From contig JALUTQ010000028.1 in the NCBI GenBank assembly GCA_032718865.1, positions 1,178,001-1,242,000 of the forward strand: a DNA stretch of 64,000 nt, read 5' to 3'. Shown one piece after another: positions 1 through 51,600 of the stretch; the stretch's first letter is position 1, and every line of letters starts with the position of its first letter. The DNA comes from Tilletia caries. Taxonomy: Eukaryota > Basidiomycota > Exobasidiomycetes > Tilletiales > Tilletiaceae. A model generated the notes under the pieces. It was not told the origin of the DNA. It searched no databases and was given only the letters and a program-made list of their open reading frames with translations. The position numbers were made by a program, and so were the translations under genes.

Positions 1-3000
1 ATCGACCCCAAAACGTCACGAAGCAGAGCTCGTGAAAGGGATAAGCATCGTTCGAACGATGGGTTTTGGACTCCACGGCGGAGAAGGAGTCGACGACAAT
101 CGTCCGCAAGGGCTTCTCTGTGCTTTGTGTAGAGTCGAAAAGGATCGTCCACGCTTTGGTTTAGCAGGATAGCGCAGAATAGGCGACGCAGAGCAGATCC
201 GTGCTGTATCGCAGAAGCTTCTCGAAGGCAGTAGTCCCACTCAGAGTCGTCGGTAAGGAGTCCACGAGCGAGGCAAGCAGCACGGAAGGTAGGATAGACG
301 AATCCTTCGAACGTCCGAACGTCAGCGAACGATGTTGGTCCCCGGACATGGTGCAGCAGCATTCTGAGATAGAATTTCTCGCCCGCCGTCTGTGGGACGA
401 AATAGACACGGCCGATCTGCCTTCCTTGGGAGCGCCGCTTCCATGTGCGGTCTTTCTGATTCCATACGTATTGGGACGGAACCTCTGGATAGGTTAGCTC
501 CGCCGTTTCGGATCCAGAGCGACCGCAGAGCTGAAAGAATGCGAGCAACTTCGATCGACGTTCTTCTCCTTCCATAGTCTCGAGAGTTCCATTCAAATCG
601 TCCGGATCAAACGTCACACGTTGACCGCCTTCCTCGTGGACGTCCAAGGACATGACAGAGGGCCATATGCCATGCAGAGGTAGCCGTAGCAGTCGTGCGA
701 CTCCTTCAAGAAAGAAAGGAAACAATACATCAGAAATTCGGATTTAGTTATGACCTGGTCTGTGAAATACTCACCTTCGCAAGGGGAGACGAATCTAGCG
801 TCCACGTACTCAGAGATCTCGTCCAGAACTTGTTGCCCCTCAGGTCCCACTGTGACCCGAGAGCGATCTGGCCCTTTAAAGATATATTTGAAGAGATATT
901 TGACCGCCTTAATGGACGTGCAAATTTCCACGTTCATGTGACAGCCAAACGTTCTGAGCAGAAAAGGATTGTGAGGTACAACCCACGTAGAGTCGACGTC
1001 TCGAAACCCGCGACCACACTGTTTCTGCACAGAAACACCAGTATTGCGACGTCGGTACAGAGGATATCCGTCGTCTCCAGCGACAGTTTCTTCCTGCAGT
1101 GCAAAGGGAAAACGTCGTGTGCAAATGCCTGGTGATTCTGGATTTTGCATACATGGCTGCTCTGGTGTGCAGGGCCCGTGTATCATCTGCCCAAGGACGT
1201 GATTATGCAGCTCTTCGTCGATTGCAGGATCCGGGAGTTCGGCACTGACGATGCTGTCAATGTCCGCTGCACATCGAGTCTTGTCCTCGTTGTTCATAGT
1301 GATGATGATGTGAGCGTGGGGAAGTCCTCGCTTTTGGAACTCGACGGTCCACGTGAAGGATACAACAGTTCCGAGGACTTGCTTCTCCTTCAGCAAGGAT
1401 ATCAGGTGCTTGAGTTTCAGCCAGAAAACGCGGCAAACGATGTCGGGCCGATCTGAAGCGCGCTGATGTGGTTTGAGATTTTCGACGATCTCCTTCCACA
1501 GCGGATTGCATGTCATGGTGATGAAGATGTCCGGTTTTTCCGTAGACGCGTACCAAAGCCATTGCATCGTGATATCGCGCCTGCATGTATCGAGGACCGT
1601 TGGTAAACGAAGAAGGTAACACGATGCGTTGACCGAGCGTGTTCAGATCCGTGCCGTTCATGAGTGCATCCTGCAGCCCCTTGTACACGTCTGCCCGAAG
1701 CTGGCTTTGATTGGATCGTATGAAGTGGAGACGTCTTTGCTCGGCAACGACCCAGGCATCGACAATGAACTCCTGCATCAATGTGCCGCCATGGAGAAGG
1801 GTCGAGAAGGTGAATCGTAGATGGAGATTATAGCAGTGGAATTGTTCAAGCGAAACTTTGTGCGAACCTCCCGCTCCCCGGCCTCGAACGACTGCAAGCG
1901 GAAACGTAAGACAGGGAGAGAGAGAGATGAGCATAAGACATTGCCTAACGTCCAGCGCATATAGGAAAGCATCAGACCGCACAGGAGGAAGCAATAACGC
2001 ACCATTGGGATCCTGCAACGCTGCAGCCGCTATATCTGCGTCTGTGGAGAACATCTCGCGAGGAGCATCCCGGCCTAAGGGAATCCAGTAATGCCAGCCC
2101 AGATGTCCGAAGGGTATGAGGATGGGGAAACGTAGAGGAAGAAAGCAAGGATGTGACTCGTTGATCCTACGAAGCGGGCCATTTTTGTATTGGAAGACGA
2201 TGTCCCTGCCGCTCCCTTCACTTGCGTTTCGATCGAAAACGATTGCTGCGACCTCGGATGCTCTTGGTAGGTTGTACGTGCGCGGATCCGGTCCTCCTTC
2301 AGCTCCAGGATGGATAATTCGTATCCCCACCTCCGTTTCGGTCGTAGCTAGATGGTCCAGCATTGTTTTCGAGCTACGCAAAGCCTCGACGAAGGGATTG
2401 ACGTCCCAAAGAATTCTCTGCAGGCCATCCAGTGTGTTCGGTTGGAGCCCAGTATTGGGCCGAGACGCTCTGATTCCGGTAGCTTGCGCAGGATCTGTGG
2501 CCATGAAGTAGACCTGAGCGTACGAAGGCGTGAAGCCGTCCTCTGGAACCAAACCGCCGATGCGATGATGTACCTGCCCTTTGACCTTGAAGGTGTATAT
2601 GCCGCGCTGTCCGGCAACGCTGAGTTCGCGAGTACCACCGAAAGAGAGGAACGCAAAGGCGTTATTGTAATCTCGAATGTTGCGACGGAATTGATCGGCC
2701 ACATCGCCACCACTTGTGTACAACGCTTGTAGCGTCGGCGGGCAGTCGAAGATTCGAGGCAGAACAACGTTTCCGTTACTGCAGCATGTGCCGAACTTCG
2801 GTTTGCACATGGACCCCGACGTCTTCTCGGATATCCAATGCAAAGCTAGGCAATGTTCGCAAACGTGTTCCATGAATCCGAGACTGTGCAGGACAGCATT
2901 TGCTCCGTCGCCGCGTGCCGGTCGATGCAGCGGCATGAAGAAAGGTGGAAAAACAGAGGGAATGGACTGTTGAGTAGGCCGGGAGGCAGTAGGAATCAAA

Positions 3001-3053
3001 GAGTCAGTGGAAGGAGAGAACTTCGACATTCCATCATCAGCGCAAGAATCCAA
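1..3053 (-). mobile_element. Helitron, Rep/helicase gene (partial, runs off left edge)
   Basis: Rolling-circle transposase of a Helitron; only the N-terminal helicase-like region and the Rep nuclease are in the window, and the PIF1 helicase would lie beyond base 1. Visible motifs: the NP motif (FITMTCNPLW) near 1490-1530, the HUH motif (GLPHAHII) near 1300-1320, and the two-tyrosine motif (AVKYLFKYIFKG) near 880-910 with both tyrosines present. Downstream, 1-500 encodes the usual Rep-helicase linker (GRVYFVPQTAGEKFYLRM and following). A GT-AG intron at 704-774 restores the frame to VMSLDVHEEGGQRVTFDPDD, so it looks like a spliced gene rather than debris. A second short intron around 1890-1950 is possible. 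The only break I find is a one-base excess in a T5/A5 run at 1535-1539, splitting the frame between RYHDAMALVRVYGK and PDIFITM. The start at 3053 is the first ATG of the upstream frame. Element ends were not located. Confidence 0.9.
704..774 (-). other. Intron in Helitron Rep gene
   Basis: GTGAGT donor at 774 and TTGAAG acceptor at 704-705 on the minus strand. Removing these 71 bases joins SPCEG to VARLLRLPLHG and re-opens the frame through the next 600 bases, which match the conserved Helitron order. Without it the frame ends at about 614. Confidence 0.8.
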
Positions 3054-3882
3054 ATCAGCTGTACTTCATAGGGCTATATGAATCATAATATCCGTTACAG
3101 TAGGTCGTTGCCGTACACCTGAAGCCTGTAGAGATTTTCATTGCAGATGTCAACATGAGGATTGAAGAAGGTAAGTTGCGTATGTGAAATGTTTCCCGAG
3201 TACTGTTGCCTTTACGGCTATAGAACTGTATCATTTGCTGTAACCAACAGGTAAAACTGTTCTGGGCTTTTTGTTTGTTGCGTTAATTTTTGCGATGTGG
3301 CGCTGTGAAAGTATGAGTTCTAATGTCTAAAGGTGCTGCAAGCCTGCAAAGTTCGGAATGAAGCACGCAAGCCCTGCTGCAAATCCCACTGTTACATTGC
3401 TCAAGGGATATGTTAGCAGCCAGATGATGGCACACTGCGAATACGGTTAGCTACGTGTATGTCAAAGATGCTGTTGACAGTCGGTGATGATGAGGTGACG
3501 TAAACTCGGTGCAACCTCTAGAGGAATAATAGGTGGCTGGAAAGTTTTTGGGCGACCCATCGAGATACTGTGATGAAGCCCACCAGGGACGGCTTCGTAA
3601 GACGAATGTGGTAAGAGCGGGGAGATGCCCAGAAAGTAAGATAGGTTCGCGAGGGGCACCAAGATCTGCTATTTGTCATGTGAGGTATGCCTGTTGAGTG
3701 AGCTGTGAGGTAAAAGAGACAATGGATTTGAGAAGGATTGTGGACTGTGGTACTCACAACGGTGGGAAAGGATAAGCGTTTCTGCAAGGGGCTCCGTGCA
3801 TGAGATTCGTGCTCCCGAGAACGTTCGGCGGCAAACTGTGTGCGTCGTGTTGTCGAGGGGTACTTCTGGATCCCGGCAAGAT
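3054..3882. other. Intergenic, Helitron to F-box gene
   Basis: AT-richer than its surroundings. It should hold the Helitron 5' end (a TC terminus read on the minus strand) and the 3' flank of the F-box gene, but I cannot place either. Short open frames here have no recognisable domain. Confidence 0.4.
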
Positions 3883-4607
3883 CTAACGGCATCGGGTGGA
3901 GACGATTTTTGCAGAGACGCGATTGACAAAGATCGTGTACTGCGCGTCGATGCAAGAGCATATCGGTAGATCATCGTAGTAGTCTTCGGAAACGATGACA
4001 TGCCGCAGGGACGGTGCGACAGATTTCCAAATGGTAGGGAAGCAGAAGTTTTTCCGTCATCGTGCCGGAGAACGTATCTAGGTCCCACTTGGAGAAGCCC
4101 TGGACGACGATGGTATGGAGGAAAGGAAATTGGGCAGAGAATGCCACAATCTCTCCATCCTCCGTCAAATCTGCAACCGAGAGGCGCCGAATGAAGAATC
4201 AGAGAAGAAGTACTGGGAGTACATGAAGAAGGACACTCACCTCCGCGGAAAAGAATGAAAACCTCGAGGAAAGGACATCGCTTCGACAGGACCCGAAACC
4301 GTGCGCTACGGTGTTGATCGCGGTAGAGATCCGTTTCCTTCAGCGACCCAGTGAATTCGAGGCGGCGAACGCACCATCCTAATGCCAGCTCCGTATAAAG
4401 TTGACGGGAGAAAGCAGAGCTGCCGTTCGGATACGAAAGGCGAACTCGCTGTAGCAACTTGAAGCGAAGCAGATGGTACCATGAATAGCAAGTCCTACTC
4501 AACTGTGCGAGAGTGGCCTGCGAGTCCGGATCGGCAAAGATATGGTTGAGTATGAGATCCCAGATCTCAGCAGGCAGTCGTGGCAGCGGTGCCATCTTGT
4601 CAACCAT
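3883..4607 (-). CDS. F-box protein (frame disturbed)
   Basis: Probable substrate-recognition subunit of an SCF ubiquitin ligase. The N-terminus carries a clear F-box (LPRLPAEIWDLILNHIF, then LSRTCYSWYHLLRFKLLQRV), residues about 6-55 from the ATG at 4607; an in-frame ATG also lies at 4730. One intron (4171-4240, GTGAGT...GCAG) joins exon 1 to DLTEDGEIVAFSAQFPF. Further on, the better-looking continuation (SVAPSLRHVIVSEDYYDDL, stop at 3883-3885) lies in a different frame and is reached only if one base is dropped from the T5 run at 4049-4053; without the change the frame stops at about 3971. The protein is short for the family and no leucine-rich repeats are evident. It is either a real frameshift or a homopolymer error. 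Confidence 0.65.
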
Positions 4608-4788
4608 CGGAGTGAGAGCGGCAGCAGGGAGTTGTGGAGAGGAAGCGGGATGCTGCGAGCAAAAAGAAGAACAGCAGGACTTTGGATCGACATTCAGGGA
4701 GAGCCGAGGAGGGCAGCTCTCAAATATCATTACTGATCACCGGTGAGCTTTCAGCTTAGTCGTCAAGAAAAATATCAGAGAGAAATGA

Positions 4789-4912
4789 GGGATACATGGT
4801 GCGATAGATACCTAAATTGTGCTGCGTCATGCGTGCAACGTGAAGAGAAATGAGTGATACATGGTGACATGGATACCTGAATTGTGCCGCGTGCATCGTG
4901 CAACTTGATTCG
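4789..4912. repeat. Two-copy tandem repeat, about 62-64 bp unit
   Basis: Two adjacent diverged copies, each starting AGAGAAATGAG-GATACATGG and ending near GTGCAAC-TGA (about 4789-4850 and 4851-4912). A looser echo of GATTGATGCAAAAT follows at about 4963-5020. No coding potential seen. Confidence 0.7.
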
Positions 4913-6732
4913 AGAATGCAATGTAGCATTGAAAAGGCTGGTAGATCAGTACATCAGTGTTCATTGATGCAAAATGCAGGGGGCACCTAACTGATGATTG
5001 ATCATTGATGCAAAATACGGGGAGATACGTGTATCATGTATACATGGATTGAAAAATTGAAACGTCAGCAAGTGAAGCAACGAACACAAAACGTTACAGC
5101 ACAACACGGTGGCAGATGAGATATGAGAATCGAGGAGGGATACATTGTTATCGTACTTGGATTTTGGCGCGGGTTGCTTTACACAAAAGAGTCGAGGAGG
5201 CAACAACGGAGGACATCGCCGTTCTCATGGCAATGGCGACGCTTGAAGCAGATACAGTCTGGAAGGTCGGGCGACGCGCTCTAGCCAGACTTGAAGGAAG
5301 CGGTTCAGGCAACTGAGGAGGAAGAAGAGCAAAGGCGCGGGGAGGGCGAGCGGGGTCATTCACTCATTGATCGATGTTCTTGAGGCCAGGAAACCCTGCA
5401 GGAGGAGGAAGCGTAAACTATCAGAAGGAGGCAGGCCGCAGGGTACTGGTGGAGTTGCGATGAGTTTTGATCATCTCCAGTCTCCACCCACTCTGTCTCA
5501 CTTATTCCCTTCACCGCCGTCGCCTACCCGACGGGTCCAGCCGTCACACACATAGTGGAAGCAACAATCCTCGATCCCCGCCACCCTATCGTGAATCGTC
5601 TTGGTTGAAGCTGTGGCAGCGTGACTCTCATAGTCCCATCTCCGGTCCGCTTCGCTACGTTCATGAAGGCAGGCACTGAGACGGATGTGGCCAGTGGCGG
5701 ACGGGTCGGAGAGCAGCCGAGCGGGTCGGACAACGGGTTTGCGGTCTGCCTCTTGCGAATAGGTCGTTCCTCCTACCGTGAATGCGCATGGCTTCAGTGA
5801 CACTACACTGCGGCGGCCGGCGTCGTCGCAGTCGTTGTCGGTATCAGGCGTTGATTCGTTGTTGAAGTTGGAGTAGCTAACAGCTTCGGGTCGACGGCCT
5901 TGCCCTTGCAATTTGGAGCGATCCAATCAGCGTGCCTGTGAGTTGTGACAACTGCACATGGTGTAACAGATGCTCACTGAGGAGTGAGGGGCGAGGCGGA
6001 TTGAAGGAGAGTTAACATTGGCTGGAAGCAGAGAAGGAGAAGGGGAAGGGCATCAGATAGAAGAAAAGCGTCAGCTAATGGAGAGGGGAGGGAGCTGATG
6101 ATGCATAGACTCCGACCGTTCTTCACCGCTGCCGTCGTCGTTGCTGATGAATTCAGAATGTGATGTGTGAATGTGATGTAGTTGTGAGTTCGATGAGGGA
6201 GGGAGAGTGGGTTGAAGGATTCGAACTGGAGGGAGGAAGCAACATAGTCAGCTACCAACTTCGGGCTGGGACTGTTGAGTGCCGGCTGATTAGGGGATGG
6301 CCGTCTCCTTTGACCTTTGTTATGCAAAAACGATTCAGATGGCGCGCCTGGGACGCATGATCGGACAGGTGCTCAGTGCTCACCGAGCAACATCGGCTAC
6401 CTGTTTGAGGCGGACGAAGAAGGAGGGATTACAATCAACCAAAGAAGAAATGGGCGTCAGCTTATGGAGAGGGGCAGAGGATTGATGACTTCAAGGTATG
6501 AGCGCTGGGAAAGGGCTGATGCCTGGGTGAAGGAGGCAGCGGAAATGATGAGGGCAACGCAGCGTGGTTTCCAGCGGGGAGCGATGTGTGTTGCTTACTT
6601 CATTTCGTGGCCGTGGGTTTCGATGATGGTGGTAACGTGGAAGTAGTGACATCGCTGTGGGTGTACAGGATCGATGTTCTTCCCACTCCGTCTATCCCAC
6701 GGCCCGAATCGGAAGCAATGCATTTCTATCAG
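4913..6732. other. Gene-poor stretch
   Basis: No protein family recognised on either strand. Open frames such as 5498-5926 (minus) and 5974-6327 (minus) are compositionally biased and lack a domain. The segments about 6065-6107 and 6450-6492 are a diverged direct repeat (GCGTCAGCT-ATGGAGAGGGG...), so part of this stretch arose by local duplication. Confidence 0.4.
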
Positions 6733-7099: not shown

Positions 7100-7695
7100 G
7101 GAAGATATATACTATTTGCAAAAACATACTATATACTATCGGGTCCCGGGAGATTTTTTTGGAAAACATACTATATACTATTTCAAAATCTGGCGGAGGT
7201 TATAGTATACTATAGTACCAATTTTGGTCCGAGACCCCGAGCACGTCGTCTCAAAGTACTATAGTATATCTATAGTATACTATACTCCCTGCAAATTGTA
7301 CTATACTCCTACGATAGTACAAATTAGTACTATAGTATACATATACTCATCAGTATACTATACTACCTGCCAATTATACTATACTTCTACGATAGTACAT
7401 GGTAGGACTGTAGTATGCATATACTATTACTATAGTACTACTATAGTATATCATTTTTGCCTGGATTGCGTTTGAGAAGGAAGTATTTAAGTATTACAAT
7501 ACTACTATAGTATGATGGAAAATTTGCGCATACTATAGTAGTATTATCATAATAACATAGTACTACCCCTTTTTGGCCTTGGAGTATAGTAGTATTATAG
7601 GAAATACTACCATACTATCCTATCCTATATACTACCTTCGCCCTCCCGACGACCAAAGGTAGTATGGAGTATACTACCCGAGCCCCTGAAAACAG
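7100..7695. repeat. AT-rich TATAGTA/GTATAC degenerate repeat tract
   Basis: About 600 bp built from overlapping self-complementary words (ACTATAGTA, GTATACTATA, AGTACTATAG) with irregular GC-containing spacers. It has no stable period and no coding frame longer than chance. Because the words are palindromic, the strand can fold on itself repeatedly. Confidence 0.75.
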
Positions 7696-7899: not shown

Positions 7900-8240
7900 T
7901 CAACGCTCCAACCTCTTCTCCTCTCCGATGTCCTCGCTCCTCGCTCTCGCCCTCACCCTCAACTTCTTCTCCTCTCCGACGTCTTCGCGTTTCGACTTTC
8001 GATTCGATATCCTCGCTCTCAACTTCTTCGCCTTCCGGCATCATCGCGTCCCGACCTCGTCTTCACAACCTCCCCGCCGTACGATCTCCTTCCCTCCGAC
8101 ATCCTCGCCTTCTGATCTCATCGGCTTCACAACCTCTTCGACATCCGATCTCCTCGACTTCGTTCGACCTCTTCACCCTCCAAACCTCTTCGCTCTCCGA
8201 CCTCATCGCCTCGTCGCCCTATGTCACACCACTCGCTTTC
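7900..8240. repeat. CT-rich degenerate repeat (CTCTCCGACxTC units)
   Basis: Recurring TCCTCGCTCTC, CTCTCCGAC and ACCTCTTCG words give a pyrimidine-rich plus strand with an open frame (7928-8371) that looks like translated low-complexity sequence rather than a gene. Confidence 0.5.
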
Positions 8241-8416
8241 CACCGCTTCCATCACCACGAGCGACGAACGCAACTCGCGACCTCGTCAAGGTGTGCAATC
8301 TTTCTTCCCATGTACATGTCTTCAGACCTTACTTTGCAACCCAGTTATGTTACGCCCGGCTGGGATCGTGAACAGCTCGCTGGACAGGTAAGAGTCGAAA
8401 TAAAGTGAGTGTATGC

Positions 8417-9616
<1,200 letters not shown>

Positions 9617-9636
9617 TGATGACTTGTAGAAGGACT

Positions 9637-10077
9637 GTGTCGAGGTGACGGGGAGCGTGATTGGATGAATAATGCGATGGACTGGGGCGGCGGGAGAAGA
9701 GGTGAGCGCGGGCGAGTGAGTGAGTGAGTGAGTGGCTCGTGGCTTTCGGGTCGCTCGAGCTGATCCTCAGCTGGCTTGAGCTCATCCAGCGTCTGAGATC
9801 ACCATCACCAGAGATCCAGAGAGAGAGGGAAGGGGATGAAACTCGCTTCCACGGGCTTCCATGGTATTCGATGTCTGTGCGTTGGTAACCAGTGTGCATT
9901 ACGTCATGGCTGCCCTTCCCACGCAGCCACGAAGCTATATAAGAAGCCACCTCCCGCCACCAGCAACCACCCTCTTCTTTCGGCTCTTCGCCCTCTTGTC
10001 GACTCATAGTTTGCTTTTGTCACGTGACTGTCTGTCGAACAAACTCTTCGGCGTTAACATCCGTCCCTCGCTGCAAG
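9637..10077. promoter_or_regulatory. Shared (probably divergent) promoter segment, copy 1
   Basis: About 0.43 kb almost identical to 34930-35368, where it separates Fanzor copy 2 from PUP1. It contains a (GAGT)n tract near 9715-9732 and TATATAAG at 9936-9943 pointing toward the Fanzor gene. The leftward side lies 50-60 bp from the first ATG of the LSB6-like locus, much as it does from the PUP1 ATG in copy 2. Confidence 0.5.
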
Positions 10078-10816
10078 TCATCGCGGATTTGGGCACCTCT
10101 CGCACAGCCTGTGCGAGGCTTGGTGCGAGCAAAGATCGCGCAGACCTCGCGCCTAGACCCCTGTGCAATATGGCTCGCACAGACCCTCGCGCAGACTTCC
10201 CTGTGCGAGCCAGCATCGCACTCTCGCTCGCGCCCCTCGCTCAGCGCGATCTTTTCTCGCACTGGAGTTCTTTGTCAGATCGCACTGACCTGTGCGAGCT
10301 CCTACGCCAGTCACCGAAGCGGCCGGCGACAAAACACCGAAGGCAGACTGTGACTTCTAGTTTCTCTAATTGAAGTGACTTTGTTTGTTGGTCTCGGAGT
10401 TTCATGTTTATCCGGTGCGCACTTAAAAAATTCACAACTTTTTTCTGGCTCGATTGACCAGCCTGTCTGAACACACCAAACCTCGTTTTTACCTATTGCT
10501 ACACGTATGTAAGGGCGACAGTGATGATGTGTGTGATCCACGCGAGTGTGTATACTGCATGCGGATGGTGATGGTGAGGGAGGTGAGAGGGTGAGCAGAC
10601 TGAGTGTCGGAGGACGCGAGGTGCGTGCGGCGTTGGTTGTTGGAGGTCAGTGCTACAGTCACGTGATCTCCGGACTGGGTCTGGGTTTGGCCTCGCGCAG
10701 GTCGATGCGAGGTTTGCGCTACTCTCTATCGCACAGGGTAAGTGCGAGGTTTGCGCGACACTATGTCGCACAACGATCGCACAGGGTCGCGCGAGGATAT
10801 AGGGTGTCCGCGATGA
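10078..10816. mobile_element. 739-bp TIR element inserted in Fanzor copy 1 leader
   Basis: Absent from copy 2, where CCCTCGCTGAAAGTTCAAGGTGAG is uninterrupted. Ends are TCATCGCGGA (10078-10087) and TCCGCGATGA (10807-10816), an exact 10-bp inverted repeat. Inside, both flanks are dense in CGCACAG/CTGTGCG and GCGAGGTTTGCGC words, forming long imperfect inverted arms around an AT-richer middle. No transposase frame. A duplicated target could be a single G at most. Non-autonomous DNA transposon, family unknown. Confidence 0.75.
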
Positions 10817-10823
10817 GTTCAAG

Positions 10824-11340
10824 GTGAGTGTTTTTCATGTTTTTGGTTTTTGATTCGTTTTTCTGTCTTTTTGTGTATGATTTTCTGCCGTTTTTCGTTC
10901 TGTAGTATTTGTTCGTGGCCATTCTATTTCCGTTTTTTTTCCGTTTTCTTTTATTTTCTTTTTCTTCTTTTCTCCTTATCATTATTAGATTAAAAGACCA
11001 ACCACGTGACTAGCAGAGTCCAACCACGTGACCAGCACCGCCCCTTCTTTTTTTCATCTTTCTTTTCTCCTTATCATTATTAGATTAAAAGACCAATCAC
11101 GTGACTAGCAGAGTCCAACCACGTGACCAGCACCGATCCTTTTTTCATTCTTTTATTTTCTTTTCTTTTTTTTTTTCTTTTTTTTTCTTTTTTTTTTCTT
11201 TTTCTTTTTCTTTTCTTTTCTTTTTCTTTTTCTTTTTCTTTTTCTCTTTGTTCTTTTTTCTTTTTTTTTGCGTCATCATCGTTAGATCAAGAGACTGACC
11301 AGCACCGCTCCTATTTTTTTCTCTTATTTGTTATATACAG
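10824..11340 (+). other. 5'-UTR intron of Fanzor copy 1
   Basis: AAG|GTGAGT donor and TTATATACAG| acceptor, seven bases before the ATG (ATCACCATGG). The same sites occur in copy 2 (34401-34924). The intron is unusually long for this genome and consists of pyrimidine tracts plus two units of a roughly 95-100-bp repeat, each with two CACGTG words (about 10975-11137). Confidence 0.7.
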
Positions 11341-11346
11341 ATCACC

Positions 11347-12760
11347 ATGGCCGACCCTCCGCCAGCGCCCTGGATTGGGTCAGTAGCACCAGAATCGGTG
11401 CTGTGGCCTGGCGTAGAAGGTCAACAACAGGCGGCGGAGTGGCATAATGCGCCCATCAATACTTGGTTTCTACCAAAATACGCCTTCCTGCCGCATCCAG
11501 TCGTGCCGGATGAAGATATCGGTGGAATGCTCACGGAGCTGAGCGCTACACTCCGGCAGCGCCTCGACGCTGTGCCTCCACCACCGCCGCCTCGTCGGAC
11601 CAGGCCTGGAGAGCGCCAAAACAATTCGCGATTGAAGACCTATCGCACCCGGCTTCGGCCGAATACACAGCAAAAGGAGGCACTTCGAAAAACGGCTGGA
11701 ATATTCAGGTGGACGTACAACCGGGCGGTGGCGTACCTCAAGGCTCACCCAAACGCCTCTTTAACCGACGTCCGGGAACATTCGGTTACAGAGGATGGCC
11801 TTCCCCTCATGAACCTGTCTTGGGTGACTCCGGTGCCATACAGCATCAGAGAGCAGGCGTGCCTTGAGGCCCATACAGCGCTTCAAAACGGCTTGGCGGA
11901 CGTTCGGGACGGCAAAATTCCGCACTTCGAGCTGAAGTTCCGGAAAAAGCGGGCGCTCTTCTCCTCCTTCCGAATTCGGACCCGTGACTGGGTTGGAGGA
12001 TGCCTCAAGATCCCAAATTTCGGTCTGGGTCCAGGTCAGCACCAGACCAAGATTCAGACGGGGATCGACGTTCCATCGCTGGAGCATGACGGGGCATGCA
12101 TCAAGCAGGAGAACGGGTCATGGTTCCTGCTTTGGCAGAAGGACGTGGGGGAAGAGAAGATGCGGGTTCCTGCAGCACGTGGCCCAGAAATGTGCGCCAT
12201 TGACCCCGGCGTTCGGACATTTGCCACGATTTACGACCCTTTGCGGGGAATGGCGGCAAAATTTGGCGATGGAGACCACAAGCGTCTTTTCCCGCCTGGG
12301 TACGCACTTGGATCAGTTGATCTCGCGATCAACCCAAGCTTCAGCAAAAAAGCGTTACCGTATGCGCCGCGCCGCAAATCGACTGCGTGCAAGAATCCGG
12401 CATCTGGTCGACGAGCTTCATTGGAAGCTGCGTGGCTACCTCAAGCAAAATTTCGACACTGTGCTGCTGCCAACATTCAACGCGCACCAAATGTCTCGGC
12501 GAGGTCAAAGGCGGATCGGGTCAAAGACAGTCAGAGCCATGATGTCGTGGGCGCACGGTCGCTTCAGAAGCCGATTAAATGAAGCTAAGGAGGTCGTCGA
12601 GGTGGTGGAGGACTGGACATCCAAGGTCTGCTCAACGTGCGGCACGGTCAATCACAGACTTGGAGGCAGCGAAATCCACCGCTGCCCCGGATGTCTCACA
12701 GTCTCGGATCGAGACGTCAATGGCGCGAAAAAAAACATTTTTCCTCCACTGGAAATATGA
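11347..12760 (+). CDS. Fanzor (TnpB-like RNA-guided nuclease family), copy 1, frameshifted
   Basis: About 470 codons. N-terminal 90 residues are Pro-rich; then comes the TnpB-type wedge region (RLKTYRTRLRPNTQQKEALR, FRWTYNRAVAYLK), RuvC-I (CAIDPGVRTFATIYDP, Asp codon 12202-12204, residue 286), the bridge/RuvC-II region (VLLPTFNAHQM), a zinc ribbon (VCSTCG...HRCPGC) and RuvC-III (SDRDVNGAKK, 12707-12724). The usual RuvC-II Glu position is occupied by LPTF; a Glu lies instead just before the zinc ribbon (VVEDWTSKVC), as described for Fanzors with a rearranged catalytic site. One lesion: CCC at 12291-12293 where copy 2 has CC, shifting frame after KRLF; the second half is open in the shifted frame to the stop at 12758-12760. 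By family, it would be nuclear and guided by an RNA from the element's 3' end; activity here is inference. Confidence 0.9.
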
Positions 12761-12764
12761 TTTT

Positions 12765-13012
12765 TCTCAACTAGTGACAGCGACATATTCTCTTTTTTTC
12801 TTTTTTTCCTTTTTCCTCTACATTTTTCTTTTTCACTTTCTTTTTTTCTTGCGCTCTTTTCCTTGCGCACTTCTCGCTTTCTTTTTTTCCCTTTTTGCCT
12901 TTTCTTTCCGGAAAAATGCCGCCGATCACACGTGATCGGCGTTTGGGAGCTGCACCCCTTTGGCTTCGGCCATTGCACTAGTCTGTATATAGTACAGGCT
13001 TGAAATGCAGCG
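12765..13012 (+). ncRNA. Candidate Fanzor guide RNA (fRNA) region, copy 1
   Basis: Non-coding tail between the Fanzor stop and the element end, kept in copy 2 at 32742-32970. It has a long pyrimidine tract and then a perfect hairpin (12920-12941, GCCGATCAC-AC-GTGATCGGC). The last 70 bp are near-identical in both copies and end GAAATGCAGCG. In characterised TnpB and Fanzor loci the guide RNA comes from this position and its 3' end reads into flanking target sequence. The assignment rests on position, conservation and the stem. Confidence 0.5.
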
Positions 13013-13523
13013 ATACAGTAATAGGCTAAGTATAATGTACACCGCCAATGTTTTCAAATGGTATGGGGAGGATTTGGACGCTGGGAGGGTCTGAAGACTC
13101 TATGCTGGAAGGGTCCTAAAGAGGTTTTTGAAAAGGGTCCTTGTGGGATTTTGGAGATACCATCCTGAGACCGTTTCTGAGATGGCCCTGAGAGTGTCTG
13201 TGCCTCGGAGGGTTCTCACACCTTCTGGGACGAAGGATCCTGGGACCTTCCTATCCAATGAGGGATCCCAAGACGATCTCCACGCAGGCCCACCAGGGAC
13301 CATTCTCGGCTCAGGCACTCCCAGCACCCTCCCAGACGCAGCGCACGATGGGTTGCGGCAAGCCAAAGCTAAATGGTAAAGTATATGTACTCACTCTGGC
13401 AGCTGGCCCCTATTACTGCGTGTACGAGTATAATCGTGGGCGTGTAGGTTAACGTCGCCAATGTATGTAAACGCTGCTGCGCTGCCTTCGACTTGATGTT
13501 GATGTTTGGGGAAGAAAGCATAC
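13013..13523. other. Intergenic, Fanzor copy 1 to TFIIIC gene
   Basis: No gene recognised. Contains GGGTCCT-type repeated words around 13080-13260 and the 3' flank of the minus-strand TFIIIC gene. Confidence 0.4.
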
Positions 13524-16500
13524 CTACAGTGTTGCCCACAAGGAAGCACAATTGGGGCACCTGGAAGCTGATGCAACTGCTCGTCGCCATCCCACCAACT
13601 TCCCGACACGTCCTTCTGCAACCATGGCCACTGCCTCTCCGCCACAGCCTGTACACACTCGAATCGGCTGATCTGACAGCAGCTCGAGGGTAACGCTGCA
13701 CCGCTCTGATGATGCCGCAAAGAACGCCAGGTCGTTGCCCGTGAGTCCTAGAGTCAGTAAACTGCTGCCAACCTCATCATCGAGGATCCGCGTCGGAAAC
13801 GTTTACGCCGCACTCACTCCACACATGTCTGTTCACACAACGGGCAAGCCGGAAGGTGCAGGAGGTCCAGGTAAGGAGCAGTGCAGAAGCGCAAGCAGGG
13901 CACTGCTCTCCTAGATCGATACCTCCGCTCTGTAGAAAAAGAAAGCTTCAGTTAATTGAGTCCAACGTATCTGAACGCCAAAGATAGCTGTCGTACCGAT
14001 GAAATGTTGCCTTGCCATTGTTCCAGAATCGATTCCTTCGACCCTGGGACATGGTTTTCGATGTGCTCGAGAAGCATCGCATTAGCTTCGGCCGCCTCGG
14101 AACCGACCGTCTCTTTCGAAAGTAGTACAGCGGCAGCTGAGAGCCTTGTGTAGAAGACAGATTCGGACTCGGCCTCTTCTGCTTGCGCGAAATTAAGTAA
14201 CATCAGAAAGGTAGAAGAAAGTGACATCGCTGTTAGCTATAACCAACATATCGGAACGCTGCTCCAGGCGCACGATGCAATGATGGGACTGACCATTATC
14301 CAGCTTTTGGCCAGCAGCAACAATCCTGGCCTTGAGGTTCCGTACCTCGAGGAGCTTTCGAATTCGATGTTGTGCCGCCTTGAGATCGTCCGCAAAGGGC
14401 CCTATTCCCATCCTCTACTCGGAAATCTCATCAGTTCTCGACATAATGTACGTCAAAACGGCGCAAACCACACGTACCTGCAACCAGTCCATGACCCAAT
14501 ACATTGCCCTCAACTGCCAGATGGACGCCTTGAAGATCCAAGCTTCGTCCGTGAAAGGCTGAACGCTACGCCAGGTGCTGTCCAGGATGCGCCGCTGTGA
14601 CGGACTGGAAGCCCCCAAGAACAGCAATACCAGGGGTGCGAACAAGTACGTCGCTGACGTGTCTGTGTATAGAACGAGTTCAGAAAATTGCAGAGCTGTT
14701 CAGCACTTCTGATACGCATTCTTTGCAATGCTGCGAATTTCGGCGGACACACCTGGGACCGATGCCTGAACGGTTTCAAGGTCTTTAAGCGTCCTCCGAA
14801 TCATCATACTGATAACCTCTTCTTCATCGGCTCCAGTTGCAGCATTGTTGAACGGATGCGTGAGCATGAGCGCTACTGTCTCTGATCGATGGTCCATCTG
14901 ACGATGGGTCAGAGATGCAAGCTCGGCGGTGCTGTGCAAGGACCCGAGAGGGAGAGGACCGTGGCTGCGATCAGAACGGAAGTCTATCAACATCTGGATC
15001 TACTTGACCGCCAACTCACTCCTGTAAGACTGCTACGACTCGGGGAAGATCGCCGACACCGCAGCTTGGAAACTCGACATAACCATTCATTCGCCGACGA
15101 ACACTGATTTCTTCTTGAGTAGCCTCTTCGGCCTGCCCTTCCAGATGTATCGTAAGCAGCTCTGGGGCCGGGTATACCGTAAGCGTTGACGTGGTCGCTC
15201 CTCCTTGAACAGTGTCTGTGTCGAGGTAGTAGATACCCCCGTGTGACGTGGTGACGCGTACTTTTTTGGCTCCACAAGGACTGGCATCTGCAATGTATGA
15301 CTGAGCGAGTGAGAAAGTGGAGTCGTCGAAAGAACAGTGTTCAGACTCACCAATCACGGTGTCGACCGGGCTCAGGTGCACGCTTACATCGCTTGGACCT
15401 GCCGTAGATGGTTGAAGCGAGAAGGTATGCCTGTGAAACTCGGGCTCGGAGGTGACGTCGACGAGGATGATAGTTCCAGGTGTGGCGATTATGAGCTGGG
15501 ACGTCGAGTCGATAAATCGTGCATAGGAGACGTAGTGACACTGCCCTGCGAAGTTGTGGCATTTCTGAGTCTCGAGCTGCCCACTTGACGTGGAAAGCCT
15601 GAGTTCAACGATTGCCACCTGTGCTTGGGCAGGACTCCACAGAGCAACGAAGCACGCCCAGGCTGAGTCTGCACCGCCATCGGAGCTAGAGGCGGATGTT
15701 TGTGCCTCTGACCATGAGCTACATGCCACAATGTGCACGATGTGACCATGGAAAGTGTCCGGACCGCGAAACTTCACACATGTTGGAGCAGCATCCGTTC
15801 CAGCCTCGAATCTGCGAACGAAATTCAACGTCACTTCGTCACTTCAAACATAACATAACATCAAGGCTCAGACTCACCTCCAAGCCGCGACCCTTCCATG
15901 CCTCGTGCTCGCGAGCAGGAAGGAAATATTTCCAGCGGCAGTGCTAGCAGAGCCCGTCCACCGATGAGCTGGAAGAAAGAGAGACTGAGCATCTGACCAG
16001 AACCTAATCCCTGAAATGGAAACCCACCGACGATGTGGGAGTCCAAGAACGCTTCCCGCTTCGAGCTGCTGTCATGCACCGGGACAGGTAAGCTCGCAGA
16101 CTGTGGACGAAGATGTTGGCATAAGCACGCGGCATGTAGATACAGCGTGTGAGATGATTCTCACCTCTTTCCAAGAACCCGTCCATCCATTTGGAGTTGC
16201 CTCATACAGAAGGAGCTTAAGGCCAGACGTCAGGATGGAAAGGTAGGATCCCTGTGCAGAGGTGAACCCGACTGGCGACCAGTCTACTTCGCGAACGGGA
16301 GCACGCTCATGCGAGGGTAGCTGCAAGCTCGTGTCTGTAAAGAGATACGAAGTCGAGCGATTCAATGGTTCATCTATGCATGCTTCAAGACTTTGCGAGA
16401 CGTACCACCCTCAATCCCCATGTCCTCTACATTTGTGAAGAGGTTGCTGTTGGCGTCGGGCTGTATGCGAGCGCACATATATGGGACACTTCGAGGACGA

Positions 16501-32741: not shown

Positions 32742-32970
32742 CGCTGCATTTCAAGCCTGTACTACTATATACAGACTAGTGCAATGGCCGAAGCCAAAGG
32801 GGTGCAGCTCCCAAACGCCGATCACGTGTGATCGGCGGCATTTTTCCGGAAAGAAAAGGCAAAAAGGGAAAAAGAAAGCGAGAAGTGCGCAAGGCAAAGA
32901 GCGCAAGAAAAAGAAAGTGAAAAGAAAATGTAGAGGAAAAGGAAAAAGAAAAAGAGAATATGTCGCTGTC
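32742..32970 (-). ncRNA. Candidate Fanzor guide RNA region, copy 2
   Basis: Counterpart of 12765-13012. The hairpin at 32816-32837 keeps the same 9-10-bp stem with loop GT in place of AC. The terminal 70 bp match copy 1 except for a 3-bp difference in TATATAGTA(GTA)CAGG. Confidence 0.5.
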
Positions 32971-32971
32971 A

Positions 32972-34394
32972 CTAGTTGAGAAAATCATATTTCCAGTGGA
33001 GGAAAATGTTTTTCGCGCCATTGACGTCTCGATCCGAGACTGTGAGACATCCGGGGCAGCGGTGGATTTCGCTGCCTCCAAGTCTGTAATTGACCGTGCC
33101 GCACGTTGAGCAGACCTTGGATGTCCAGTCCTCCACCACCTCGACGACCTCCATAGCTTCATTTAATCGGCTTCGGAAGCGACCGTGCGCCCACGTCATC
33201 ATGGCTCTGACTGTCTTTGACCCGATCCGCCTTTAACCTCGCCGAGACATTTGGTGCGCGTTGAATGTTGGCAGCAGCACAGTGTCGAAATTTTGCTTGA
33301 GGTAGCCACGCAGCTTCCAATGAAGCTCGTCGACCAGATGCCGGATTCTTGCACGCAGTCGATTTGCGGCGCGGCGCATACGGTAACGCTTTTTTGCTGA
33401 AGCTTGGGTTGATCGCGAGATCAACTGATCCAAGTGCGTACCCAGGCGGAAAAGACGCTTGTGGTCTCCATCGCCAAATTTTGCCGCCATTCCCCGCAAA
33501 GGGTCGTAAAGCGTGGCAAATGTCCGAACGCCGGGGTCAATGGCGCACATTTCTGGGCCACGTGCTGCAGGAACCCGCATCTTCTCTTCCCCCATGTCCT
33601 TCTGCCAAAGCAGGAACCATGACCCGTTCTCCTGCTTGATGCATGCCCCGTCATGCTCCAGCGATGGAACGTCGATCCCCGTCTGAATCTTGGTCTGGTG
33701 CTGACCTGGACCCAGACCAAAATTTGAGATCTTGAGGCATCCTCCAACCCAGTCACGGGTCCGAATTCGGAAGGAGGAGAAGAGCGCCCGCTTTTTCCGG
33801 AACTTCAGCTCGAAGTGCGGAATTTTGCCGTCCCGAACGTCCGCCAAGCCATTCTGAAGCGCTGTATAGGCCTCAAGGCACGCCTGCTCCCTGATGCTGT
33901 ATGGCACCGGATTCACCCAAGACAGGTTCATGAGGGGAAGGCCATCCTCTGTAACCGAATGTTCCCGGACGTCGGTTAAAGAGGCGTTTGGGTGAGCCTT
34001 GAGGTACGCCACCGCCCGGTTGTATGTCCACCTGAATATTCCAGCCGTTTTTCGAAGTGCCTCCTTTTGCTGTGTATTCGGCCGAAGCCGGGTGCGATAG
34101 GTCTTCAATCGCGAATTGTTTTGGCGCTCTCCAGGCCTGGTCCGACGAGGCGGCGGTGGTGGAGGCACAGCGTCGAGGCGCTGCCGGAGTGTAGCGCTCA
34201 GCTCCGTGAGCATTCCACCGATATCTTCATCCGGCACGACTGGATGCGGCAGGAAGGCGTATTTTTGGTAGAAACCAAGTATTGATGGGCGCATTATGCC
34301 ACTCCGCCGCCTGTTGTTGACCTTCTACGCCAGGCCACAGCACCGATTCTGGTGCTACTGACCCAATCCAGGGCGCTGGCGGAGGGTCGGCCAT
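32972..34394 (-). CDS. Fanzor, copy 2, with one frameshift and one stop
   Basis: Begins ATCACCATGG (ATG at 34392-34394) like copy 1. Two lesions differ from copy 1: an A5 run (T5 at 34262-34266) where copy 1 has A4, shifting frame at about residue 44; and TAA at 33233-33235 where copy 1 has CAA, a Gln-to-stop change after NAHQMSRRG. The frame is intact at the site where copy 1 is shifted (33448-33449). RuvC-I (CAIDPGVRTFATLYDP), alternative Glu (VVEDWTSKVC), zinc ribbon and RuvC-III (SDRDVNGAKNIF) are all present. Protein differences from copy 1 are few (for example T/N, H/Y, P/S, V/M), so the duplication is recent. Several of the changes are C-to-T or G-to-A transitions. Confidence 0.88.
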
Positions 34395-34400
34395 GGTGAT

Positions 34401-34924
34401 CTGTATATAACAAATAAGAGAAAAAAATAGGAGCGGTGCTGGTCAGTCTCTTGATCTAACGATGATGACCCAAAAGAAAGAAAAAAAGAAAAGAAAAGAA
34501 AAGAATGAAAAAAGGATCGGTGCTGGTCACGTGGTTGGACTCTGCTAGTCACGTGATTGGTCTTTTAATCTAGTAATGATAAGGAGAAAAGAAAGATGAA
34601 AAAAAAAGAAGGGGCGGTGCTGGTCACGTGGTTGGACTCTGCTAGTCACGTGATTGGTCTTTTAATCTAATAATGATAAGGAGAAAAGAAAGATGAAAAA
34701 AAAGAAGGGGCGGTGCTGGTCACGTGGTTGGACTCTGCTAGTCACGTGGTTGGTCTTTTAATCTAATAATGATAAGGAGAAAAGAAGAAAGATAAAATAA
34801 AAGAAAACGAAAAAAAAGGAAAAAAAAGGCAACGAACAAAAACTACAGATCGAAAAACGGCAGAAAATCATACACAAAAAGACAGAAAAACGAATCAAAA
34901 ACGAAAAACACGAAAAACACTCAC
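34401..34924 (-). other. 5'-UTR intron of Fanzor copy 2, with three CACGTG repeat units
   Basis: AAG|GTGAGT donor at 34924 and ATATACAG| acceptor at 34401. Three tandem units of about 95 bp (about 34516-34610, 34611-34706, 34707-34805), each with GGTGCTGGTCACGTGGTTGG and a second (A/G)-variant CACGTG site, then purine-rich spacer. Confidence 0.7.
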
Positions 34925-35074
34925 CTTGAACTTTCAGCGAGGGACGGATGTTAACGCCGAAGAGTATGTTCGACAAACAGTCACGTGACAAAAGCAAACT
35001 ATGAGTCGACAAGAGGGCGAAGAGCCGAAGGGGGGGGGGAAAGAGAGCGGTTGCTGGGGGTGGGGGGGTGGCTT

Positions 35075-35082
35075 CTTATATA
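35075..35082 (-). promoter_or_regulatory. TATA box of Fanzor copy 2
   Basis: CTTATATA on the plus strand, so TATATAAG toward the Fanzor gene; same place as 9936-9943 in copy 1. Confidence 0.5.
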
Positions 35083-35418
35083 GCTTCGTGGCTGCAGCCA
35101 TGACGTAATGCACACTGGTCACCAACGCACAGACATCGAATACCATGGAAGCCCGTGGAAGCGAGTTCCATCCTTCCCTCTCTCTGGTGATGGTGATCTC
35201 AGACGCTGGATGAGCTCAAGCCAGCTGAGGATCAGCTCGAGCGACCCGAAAGCCACGAGCCACTCTCACTCTCTCTCACTCACTCGCCCGCGCTCACCTC
35301 TTCTCCCGCCGCCCCAGTCCATCGCATTATTCATCCAATCACGCTCCCCATCACCTCCTGCTCGACACTCAGCACACAGCACTCAACAGCATACACTCAC
35401 ACACACACAGCAGCGACA

Positions 35419-48698: not shown

Positions 48699-51600
48699 GA
48701 TCGCATGCGACTGCGGTTCCATACGGACAAGAACACCCGCACCAATGCGACGGCATGTTCCTGTTTGCTGTACGAGACCGACTTCTTGATCCTGGCAAGT
48801 CCCGCGTTCCCACACTCGGCGGCGGAGGAGTATACGTGTTGGAGTTTGGGGTCGTTGCGCATGTATGTTGACAGACGACTAGCTGCAGAACAATTCACAT
48901 GACCCTTTTCATGCATCTGATCTACCACAAACAGTGTGTTTTGAAAGAAGTCAAGTTCTCGTCGTAGAGAATAGGGTCCCAGTTGGCATGCATAGTCGTA
49001 GACAACGACATTTGGAGGAGTCGGCCAGTGCGAGAATAGCGCGGAGAAGACATCGTTGCGTCCCTCCGCTTGTGGGATCACATGGAATCCGACGCAGATA
49101 CAGTGCGTACACCAGAGCGCCATGATCCCTCCCGTCCGCTGCCGTCTGACGTACATGTCGTAGAACTTGCGACACTGAGTCACGTCATCTGCCGCACTCT
49201 CCATGATTGCCCGCTTTTCATTCTCCTTTCCGGTCTTTCCTTCGTCCAAGAACGGGTAGACAGGCCGTGTACGGCACCTGGGAGCCCCGTATAGCGATCC
49301 GGTCTGTGTGTACTGTGTGGATGCTGAGAGGTCGTCGGCAGACGCGGGCGGGGTTGGTCGTGCGTTGAGAACTGTCATCTGGTACGCAATGACATCTGCC
49401 GTTGATCCCATTAGGAGCTGTATGGACCTGAAGATAAGGTTGTCCCCGGAGTTGACGCGGAGCTGGGGTTTTGCGGACTCCGTACTCCTCCGACGGAAGG
49501 CTCCGCCGGAGGCGGAGCGCGGAGCTCACTTTTGAGAAATTTTTGATCTTAAAAAGCACGGAGTCCGCCTGGAGGACTCCGCCGGAATCTACGCGGAGCG
49601 CGGAGCCCAATCCTGAGCCCACTAGCCAAAGGTACGGAGCGCGGAGTCGTCAAAATTGTGTGAGAATTCCGGCGGAATTTCCGCGGAATTCCGACGGAGC
49701 TGTGAGGTCACGTGATAGTCGAGAATAGGGGTCACGTGACCTTATTTTTGGGTGCGCTACGCCGGAATTCCGTCCAAGTTCCGCGGAAATGTGCGGAATT
49801 CCGAGAAAATAGGCATCGTCGAGACACGCGCAGGGGATAAAACAGGCGTCATCATCCGTTGAGAGCTTCAGAATAGCACTGCGGTCAATACCGCAACAAT
49901 GTCGGATGGTGAATGTATAGCTCTAATTGTGTTAGAGTCATTCTGAGAGCGAATTATACCACCACTGCGCTCCGACGGAATTCCGCGGAATTCCGAGCTC
50001 CGCATACACGGAGCACGGAGGAGCATTATGAAAACGCACAGAAAAAACGCGGAGCGCGGAGCTGGGATTTCAACTTTTGTATAATTCCGTCGGAACACGG
50101 AGCTAGTTTTTTTCAGCTCTGTCTTAGTCTGCGGAGGCGGAGCTCGCCTCAAAAAGTCAAAATTCCGGCGGAATTTGGAAGTGCGGAGGCGGAGCCCTCC
50201 GCGTTACTCCGGGGACAACCTTACCTGAAGAGCGTGTGGTTGGCTGTCGTCATGCTGGGTGCAACAAATAGCAGCATAATATTGCCAAGGAAAGGAGAGT
50301 GCCGTGCCAGAGTGGTCCCCACTCGCAAGAACCTGTCGTCGCCCGAGTCGAGTTCGTACGTGCTGAGTTCGATCAGTAGAGACTGGCAGAGGGGACGACA
50401 AAGCTGCAGGACACCATCGTTTGCCGCAAACTGTGCGATGGCATGCTGAAGTGCCGCTCGTATATCCGTATCCATCGTATCGGCCAAGCAGAGATCCAGC
50501 ATGAGCTGTTTGAGACGTGTTGCCCACAATCGCATTGCATTTGGCATTGACGCGGAAGAGGCTTCAAGTGCGGACGAGTAGCGTTGAATTGCTGCAAGCT
50601 GTTCGTCCTTATCGCCTTCGAGAGACTTGGCAAAGGCAAGAGCTGTGGTCCTGGTGAGAGAATTGGGAAGAAAAGAGAGAATGGTTCCTGGACGTGCACG
50701 GGGATTGACATCGGTCCCTGTTCTGGTGGGTGGTGCAAGGTCAGCATGACGAAGAGCAGCGCTGTATGCGAGCACGATACCGTCTGCGATGACTATAGAC
50801 GGTGTCGGACCGCACTTTGAACAAGAGAGGGCGACGTCCAGCTGCTGGAGAGCGACGTATGCGAAGTATAGCTTGACGAACGTGCTGCGGGCAACGAACT
50901 TCTGTCCCATTCCGGGATCATGTTGCTCGTATGCATGCTGTGTTGTCGCCCAGAAGGCTGTCAACGGAGTCGGTGACACGGAAAGCTGAGACGTGTAGCC
51001 GTTGAACAGTTCGTGAGAGACCATGATTCCATTGTTCCAATTGAATGTGCCGTACTCCGAGAGGTCTGGGCCGATGCTGCGCTTCTCTGAACCTCTCCGA
51101 CAGTGACACTCTTGGGTCTCTACCATCTTCGAGACATAACCCGTGCTGTGGTATATCGAACAGGGTCGCAGTCGTATCCGCTTCGTTTTATCGCTGAGAT
51201 TTCCGCAGTCACACCGAGCATGCGCTCCCAGTGGTAGGACATCGGGAAGGTCTCGGGCATGGAGAGGGCGAGGTTGTATTGGTTCAGTAGGAAGGCGGCA
51301 AAACGGCGGAGGTGGGATGGGTAGATGCGAACAGGGCTGTAGCTGCGTCGAAGAGCTTGACTCCTCTGCCATGTTGCTATCCGAATCATCTGCAGTGTGA
51401 AAAGCAGATGTACAGTACACAAAAAAAGGATCAGCGCTTATTTCCCTGTCGTGTAATGGCCACAGTCCACTCAAAGTGATGTGTGCACAGAGGTATCCGA
51501 CTGTGCTCACCAGAAACGTTCTCAGCTCTCTCGTTCAGTTCCATCCGCTGTAATGTATCAAGCTCGAGCGTGTCCGTCCAGAATTTGTGCGCTCTTTGCC

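What the first reader, a model, noticed from the sequence alone, without database searches (positions are those of the whole stretch)
9637..13012. Fanzor (eukaryotic TnpB) element with complete architecture
A TnpB/RuvC nuclease gene with zinc ribbon, its own TATA promoter, a spliced leader and a conserved non-coding 3' tail, all inside limits that recur at a second site. Family knowledge: Fanzors are RNA-guided DNA endonucleases in eukaryotes, often carried on transposons. Here no transposase gene accompanies it, which raises the question of how it moved.
Basis: partly seen in the sequence, partly recalled or inferred. Interest (0 to 1): 0.9.

Follow-up and report, generated by a model that had tools for sequence, protein, structure and literature searches.

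The report
Gene-collecting Fanzor family, broken copy
This is a broken copy of a mobile gene for an RNA-guided DNA-cutting enzyme (a Fanzor) in a bunt-type fungus; most copies of its family end at the same base on one side while the other side carries different pieces of host genes, which suggests an unusual one-sided way of spreading.

Summary
The Fanzor call is right; "complete architecture" is not. The host looks like a Tilletia. Sequence, profile and fold searches put the protein nearest the mimivirus Fanzor2. The focal copy is broken: its frame changes near 12.29 and 12.73 kb, and a 737-bp TIR element splits its leader. Four of 19 copies keep full frames. Of 20 family loci, 18 reach the same 3' terminus (13012), with 17 different flanks, no preferred first base (16 compared) and no target duplication above chance (16 tested). 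The terminus closes a conserved, strongly folded omega-RNA-like tail. The 5' limit 9637 is no end: it lies inside captured host DNA. Copies carry different host-gene pieces there, introns kept, joined as mosaics; two copies share one seam exactly but differ outside it on both sides. No IS607- or IS200-type transposase domain was found in the genome; Helitron Rep domains gave 60 matches. Best reading: one-ended transposition at the DNA level, machinery in trans (Helitron-type is a guess; no shared terminus seen).

The parts
8200..9320 (-). outermost captured host DNA seen: three stretches (8200-8351, 8352-9054, 9065-9320) that match C23:1107091-1110546 in order, the last with a PI4K type 2-like exon
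   Evidence: 99-100% identity; seams without GT-AG skips; PI4K2 match E 4e-7
9323..9598 (-). captured piece shared with Fanzor-side regions on C1 and C7
   Evidence: 98% and 97% identity
9637..9745 (-). 5' region of an unidentified host gene (native on C22); end approximate
   Evidence: 97.9% to native L070 over 9637-9730; native match runs to C22:536384
9714..10078 (+). upstream and leader DNA shared by the long copies, TATATAA at 9936-9942
10079..10815 (.). later insertion: element with TIR CATCGCGGA/TCCGCGATG and 3-bp duplication AGT
   Evidence: absent from 13 other readable copies; same element with duplication ATT in L022
10824..11340 (+). predicted leader intron
   Evidence: splice sites kept in 14 of 14 and 15 of 15 readable copies
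11347..12760 (+). Fanzor reading frame, broken: HTH_OrfB and RuvC-I DPG (12202) in one frame, TNB zinc ribbon (12584-12730) in another; frame changes near 12.29 and 12.73 kb
12779..12898 (+). pyrimidine-rich spacer, little conserved
   Evidence: 67-83% mean pairwise identity
12899..13012 (+). conserved folded tail, predicted omega-RNA scaffold; 13012 is the fixed end
13013..13030 (+). predicted guide (flanking DNA); extent assumed
   Evidence: inference from TnpB/Fanzor biology; flank differs between copies
32742..35357 (-). second copy of the family, also broken, joined at 35357 to a captured proteasome beta gene piece

Best explanation
The feature is a broken member of a multi-copy Fanzor2-type family in a Tilletia-like genome. 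Shown from sequence: the family has one fixed end, the base closing a folded omega-RNA-like tail, and an open 5' side that carries different pieces of host genes with introns kept; in two copies the piece was clearly carried along with the Fanzor. Inferred: intact copies make an RNA-guided nuclease whose guide is read from the DNA past the fixed end. Inferred: copies spread as DNA by one-ended replicative transposition that is exact at the fixed end and can run on past the 5' side, taking host DNA with it. Weakest step (about 35%): the enzyme is a rolling-circle (HUH) type supplied in trans, such as resident Helitrons; the predicted stem-loop 12 nt (F1) or 10 nt (F2) before the terminus would suit one. 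Captured host promoters may be kept because they help expression (speculative).
For: 18 of 20 F1 loci reach the same terminus, 17 different flanks. L017 and WC2 share the host/Fanzor seam to the base, carry 1.2 and 2.3 kb of the same host gene and have different outer flanks, while the native locus is uninterrupted. Host pieces at other copies. Introns in host pieces and leader kept. No target duplication above chance in 16 of 16 loci tested. No Resolvase or Y1 domain found; 60 Helitron Rep matches. The same asymmetry is reported for Fanzor1 elements on Helitron2 in Chlamydomonas (PMC3627910, section read).
Against: No Helitron-type terminus: the base after the end is A, C, G, T four times each in 16 flanks and the end is not CTRR (recalled rule). 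A search with the last 118 bases found only this family's own ends, none beside a transposase that I could see. True 5' ends were not located for any copy. No unoccupied site was found. Some spread is certainly by duplication (the C5 inverted pair).
Confidence: 0.55

Rival explanations
1. Passive spread: copies and host pieces were scattered by segmental duplication, ectopic recombination and patchy break repair rather than by transposition.
For: The C5 pair is an inverted duplication that includes the right flank; the focal host pieces are a patchwork with a telomere-like CCCTAACCC at one seam; the window lies near a contig end.
Against: Sharing is one-sided: 5' pieces are shared in groups but the 3' flank changes at one exact base in 17 of 18 loci.
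Confidence: 0.22
2. Reverse-transcribed copies (LINE-type insertion of a long transcript, truncated at the 5' side).
For: Fixed 3' end and ragged 5' end are typical of this route (general knowledge).
Against: The leader intron is kept in all copies readable there, no target duplication above chance, no A tail at the terminus.
Confidence: 0.1
3. Relic of an IS607 element whose serine recombinase has been lost; no longer mobile.
For: The protein is nearest Fanzor2, typical of IS607 elements (PMC3627910 abstract; PMC10711439 passages).
Against: No Resolvase-domain match in the genome; four open frames, host pieces at 97-100% identity and dN/dS of 0.30-0.50 between intact copies point to later activity; IS607 fixes the first flanking base (PMC10711439 passage), here it is random.
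Confidence: 0.07
4. The first reader's element with two fixed limits, 9637-13012.
For: Several copies are similar from about 9637-9642 onward.
Against: 9637 lies inside a host gene's native 5' region and L025 continues through it; L018 and L028 begin at 9714.
Confidence: 0.03

Closest known systems
CRe-1, -2, -3 Fanzor1 elements on Helitron2 in Chlamydomonas reinhardtii (PMC3627910, section read)
   Same: No transposase, 3' end kept, 5' side often truncated, some extra sequence at the 5' side, one-ended transposition proposed.
   Different: Those share terminal sequence with known Helitrons and often have duplications of 7-19 bp; here neither was found. Those are Fanzor1.
MCi-2 Fanzor1 family of Mucor circinelloides (PMC3627910, section read)
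   Same: Near-identical 3' part with the Fanzor, different 5' regions in subfamilies, no TIRs, class unknown.
   Different: MCi-2A and 2D have 11-12-bp duplications and one has part of a Crypton gene; here no duplication was found and the 5' pieces include host-gene parts.
Fanzor2s outside IS607 ('Fanzor2*', Chloropicon and molluscs; PMC10711439 passages)
   Same: Fanzor2-type protein carried by something other than IS607.
   Different: Those are cut-and-paste elements with TIRs and duplications.
Gene-capturing Helitrons (PMC4289320 passages; PMC3627910)
   Same: Captured host DNA with introns beside one end.
   Different: No Helitron terminus found here; in Pleurotus intact Helitrons showed no host-gene fragments (passage).
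Acanthamoeba polyphaga mimivirus Fanzor2 (9b0l)
   Same: Best sequence, profile and fold match.
   Different: Low identity (16% in the fold alignment).

Membership tests
Fanzor / TnpB nuclease | HTH_OrfB and TNB zinc ribbon | tested here: met
   focal, in two frames; one frame in L021
Fanzor / TnpB nuclease | DPG and displaced glutamate in the published spacing | tested here: met
   L021 matches the strict expression, as do 104 of the 120 listed relatives
Fanzor / TnpB nuclease | TnpB/Cas12 fold | tested here: met
   model of relative P0003 (62% identical), pLDDT 88; best fold match 9b0l. Not the focal protein itself
Fanzor / TnpB nuclease | omega-RNA made from the 3' end | not testable with these tools
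   conserved folded tail only; no RNA data
Fanzor / TnpB nuclease | RNA-guided DNA cutting | not testable with these tools
   -
Fanzor2 rather than Fanzor1 | closer to Fanzor2 in sequence and fold | tested here: met
   9b0l first; SpuFz (Fanzor1) ranks 38-39 by fold and is not among sequence matches. No tree with named Fanzor1s was made
IS607 element | serine recombinase | tested here: not met
   0 Resolvase matches in the genome; control rings in 10 of 14
IS607 element | fixed first flanking base | tested here: not met
   4 of each base in 16 flanks
Helitron | CTRR end followed by T | tested here: not met
   end is CAGC(G/A), next base random; rule recalled
Helitron | terminal sequence shared with an autonomous Helitron | tested here: inconclusive
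   118-base search found only this family; termini of the resident Helitrons were not reached
TIR cut-and-paste transposon | terminal inverted repeats and constant duplication | tested here: not met
   no duplication above chance in 16 loci; repeat search of 9000-14000 gave one inverted pair, inside the insertion. True 5' ends unknown

The most novel reading that the evidence does not exclude
A new kind of Fanzor carrier: a transposase-less, one-ended element whose single defined end is the omega-RNA terminus and which repeatedly takes on the 5' ends of active host genes upstream of the nuclease, so that its promoter is renewed from the host; movement might even depend on the nuclease's own cuts rather than on a transposase.
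Probability: 0.2. Interest if true: 0.85.

Novelty: new variant of a known kind. Interest (0 to 1): 0.6.

Why it matters
How Fanzors spread without a transposase of their own is open. This genome offers about 20 copies with one precise end, layers of captured host DNA of different age and four open frames, so movement can be studied from sequence alone. It also shows a Fanzor2-type nuclease outside IS607 in a bunt-type fungus, with captured host 5' regions that could serve as promoters. Searches of the held library for Fanzor with Tilletia and with Basidiomycota found no paper; the library lacks most subscription journals.

Tried and rejected
Rejected: 9637 as an end. Spliced-RNA origin of the host mosaic: the two internal C23 seams in the focal copy show no GT-AG skip and host introns are kept. 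Target duplications: none above chance for 16 of the 18 loci with a terminus; L016 and C5:897796 were not tested. A paralogous unoccupied site for the two window copies: the right flank of the second copy is unique, that of the focal copy runs into an unrelated dispersed repeat. Rfam: one match below its gathering score, on the other strand. The first structure job, sent without an alignment, gave pLDDT 39 and was set aside. Five hundred bases past the resident Helitron did not reach its 3' end. Pfam did not support my guess for the C22 gene, so it is left unidentified; epimerase and second proteasome-beta identities are below cut-off. Covariation of the tail was not tested; the copies are too alike.

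Rows left out: nine of the 31 TNB matches were never fetched. The 20 F1 loci are the 19 plus C5:897796; L014 and L023 lack the terminus; for L016 the terminus 8 kb away (L043) is assigned by inference, for L012 it follows an insertion.

Full report
What it is. The window lies in a 38.1-Mb, 40-contig genome. The closest proteins to an intact copy of the nuclease are from Tilletia laevis (91% identity over 88%) and T. caries (96% over 63%), and the last 159 residues of a second family equal a T. laevis protein, P0007. The host is therefore most likely a bunt fungus of that group; the species was not tested. A search for the TNB domain gave 31 matches. Nineteen loci, 17 fetched and two in this window, belong to the focal family (F1) by DNA similarity; a search with the tail adds C5:897796, making 20. 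Three on C34 are a second family, F2. Nine matches were not fetched.

The protein. The focal copy matches HTH_OrfB and the TNB zinc ribbon in two different frames; against intact copies the frame changes near 12.29 and 12.73 kb. L016, L017, L021 and L025 have open frames of 473-474 residues. L021 has DPG and the displaced glutamate in the spacing published for Fanzors (expression from PMC10711439, passages seen). The best solved relative is the mimivirus Fanzor2 9b0l by single sequence (E 3.6e-18), by profile (8e-57) and by fold of the 62%-identical relative P0003 (pLDDT 88; E 2.5e-21); SpuFz, a Fanzor1, ranks 38-39 in the fold search. In a tree of 56 proteins the nine other Tilletia proteins used group with F1, next to two unnamed environmental proteins (supports not shown, midpoint root). 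dN/dS is 0.30-0.50 in the six pairs of intact copies and 0.42 as ratio of means over 153 pairs of 18 copies (simple counting, pairs not independent).

Tail and fixed end. Mean pairwise identity is 94-99% along the coding part, drops to 67% in the spacer and is 96-98% in 12899-13012. The tail (12905-13012) folds at -41.9 kcal/mol, z = -3.8, 0 of 200 shuffles as low; its last bases close a helix, and a stem-loop ends 12 nt before the terminus. The F2 tail folds with a similar plan but less clearly (z = -2.4, 5 of 200 shuffles as low). Eighteen of 20 F1 loci reach the terminus: 17 read (one of them, L043, assigned to L016) and L012 after an insertion. They have 17 different flanks; the two alike belong to an inverted duplication on C5. 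In the 16 flanks compared the first base is each letter four times. No target duplication above chance was found in 16 loci.

Open 5' side. The native locus C22:536080-536370 runs unbroken through the stretch equal to focal 9637-9730, and in L025 the same host piece continues over 290 columns including the host ATG; the native match ends 126 bp upstream of that ATG. L017 and the second window copy carry a proteasome beta gene (38.9 bits) joined 62 bp upstream of its ATG at the same base, with 1.2 and 2.3 kb of it, while the native C32 locus is uninterrupted there. L018, L023 and a C40 locus carry a piece native on C3 that looks like another proteasome beta gene (13 bits, below cut-off), in L018 ending 4 bp from its ATG. 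L018 and L027 share a prohibitin-like piece. Beside F2 in L009 lies an ATP synthase g gene (37.4 bits); L010 and L011 share shorter parts of that side. In the focal copy pieces are stacked: C22 piece (97-98%), 9323-9598 shared with C1 and C7 (97-98%), then three stretches of C23:1107-1110 kb (99-100%), so the outermost look youngest. Three native seams could be measured (126, 62, 4 bp from an ATG).

How it works. The shared seam with unrelated outer flanks shows that the host piece travelled with the Fanzor. Kept introns favour DNA over RNA as intermediate. One precise and one open end is what one-ended transposition gives; Bao and Jurka describe this asymmetry for Fanzor1 elements of Chlamydomonas and variable 5' regions for MCi-2 of Mucor (PMC3627910, sections 5, 8 and 12 read). 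The genome holds 60 Helitron Rep matches, one locus in this window at 1.3-1.8 kb with three copies elsewhere 99% alike over all 5,200 bases queried, and no IS607- or IS200-type TnpA domain. But no Helitron-type end and no shared terminus were found, so the enzyme is inference. I put one-ended movement above passive duplication and leave the enzyme open.

Verdict. A sound find, misread in two ways: this copy is a relic, and the interest lies in the family's open, gene-collecting 5' side. Known kind, new variant; testable with sister genomes.

Noticed in passing
window 1-5200 (-): A Helitron: Rep domain split over two frames at 614-1567 and 1257-3029, with three copies elsewhere 99% alike over the whole query, so recently active.
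   Followed up: partly
window 10079-10815; L022; L009 oriented from about 5523: TIR element (CATCGCGGA) with 3-bp duplications AGT and ATT. A similar end stands beside a tnp2-type transposase frame (PF02992, 40.5 bits) in L009, a possible autonomous partner.
   Followed up: partly
window 13038-13344: A dispersed repeat of about 307 bp beginning 25 bp past the Fanzor end; five further copies at 95-98% over its length, others diverged.
   Followed up: no
window 7200-7600: AT-rich array of TACTATAGTA-like palindromes.
   Followed up: no
window 9057: Telomere-like CCCTAACCC exactly at a seam between two captured host pieces, its only occurrence in the window on either strand.
   Followed up: no
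protein P0004 (another Tilletia genome): A related Fanzor of 655 residues listed with an extra domain, PF17035: a possible fusion.
   Followed up: no
window 50221-51372 (-): Frame with the CxC4 cysteine cluster associated with KDZ transposases, 110.8 bits.
   Followed up: no
L013 and L026 (C5): Two F1 copies in an inverted duplication that includes the right flank.
   Followed up: partly
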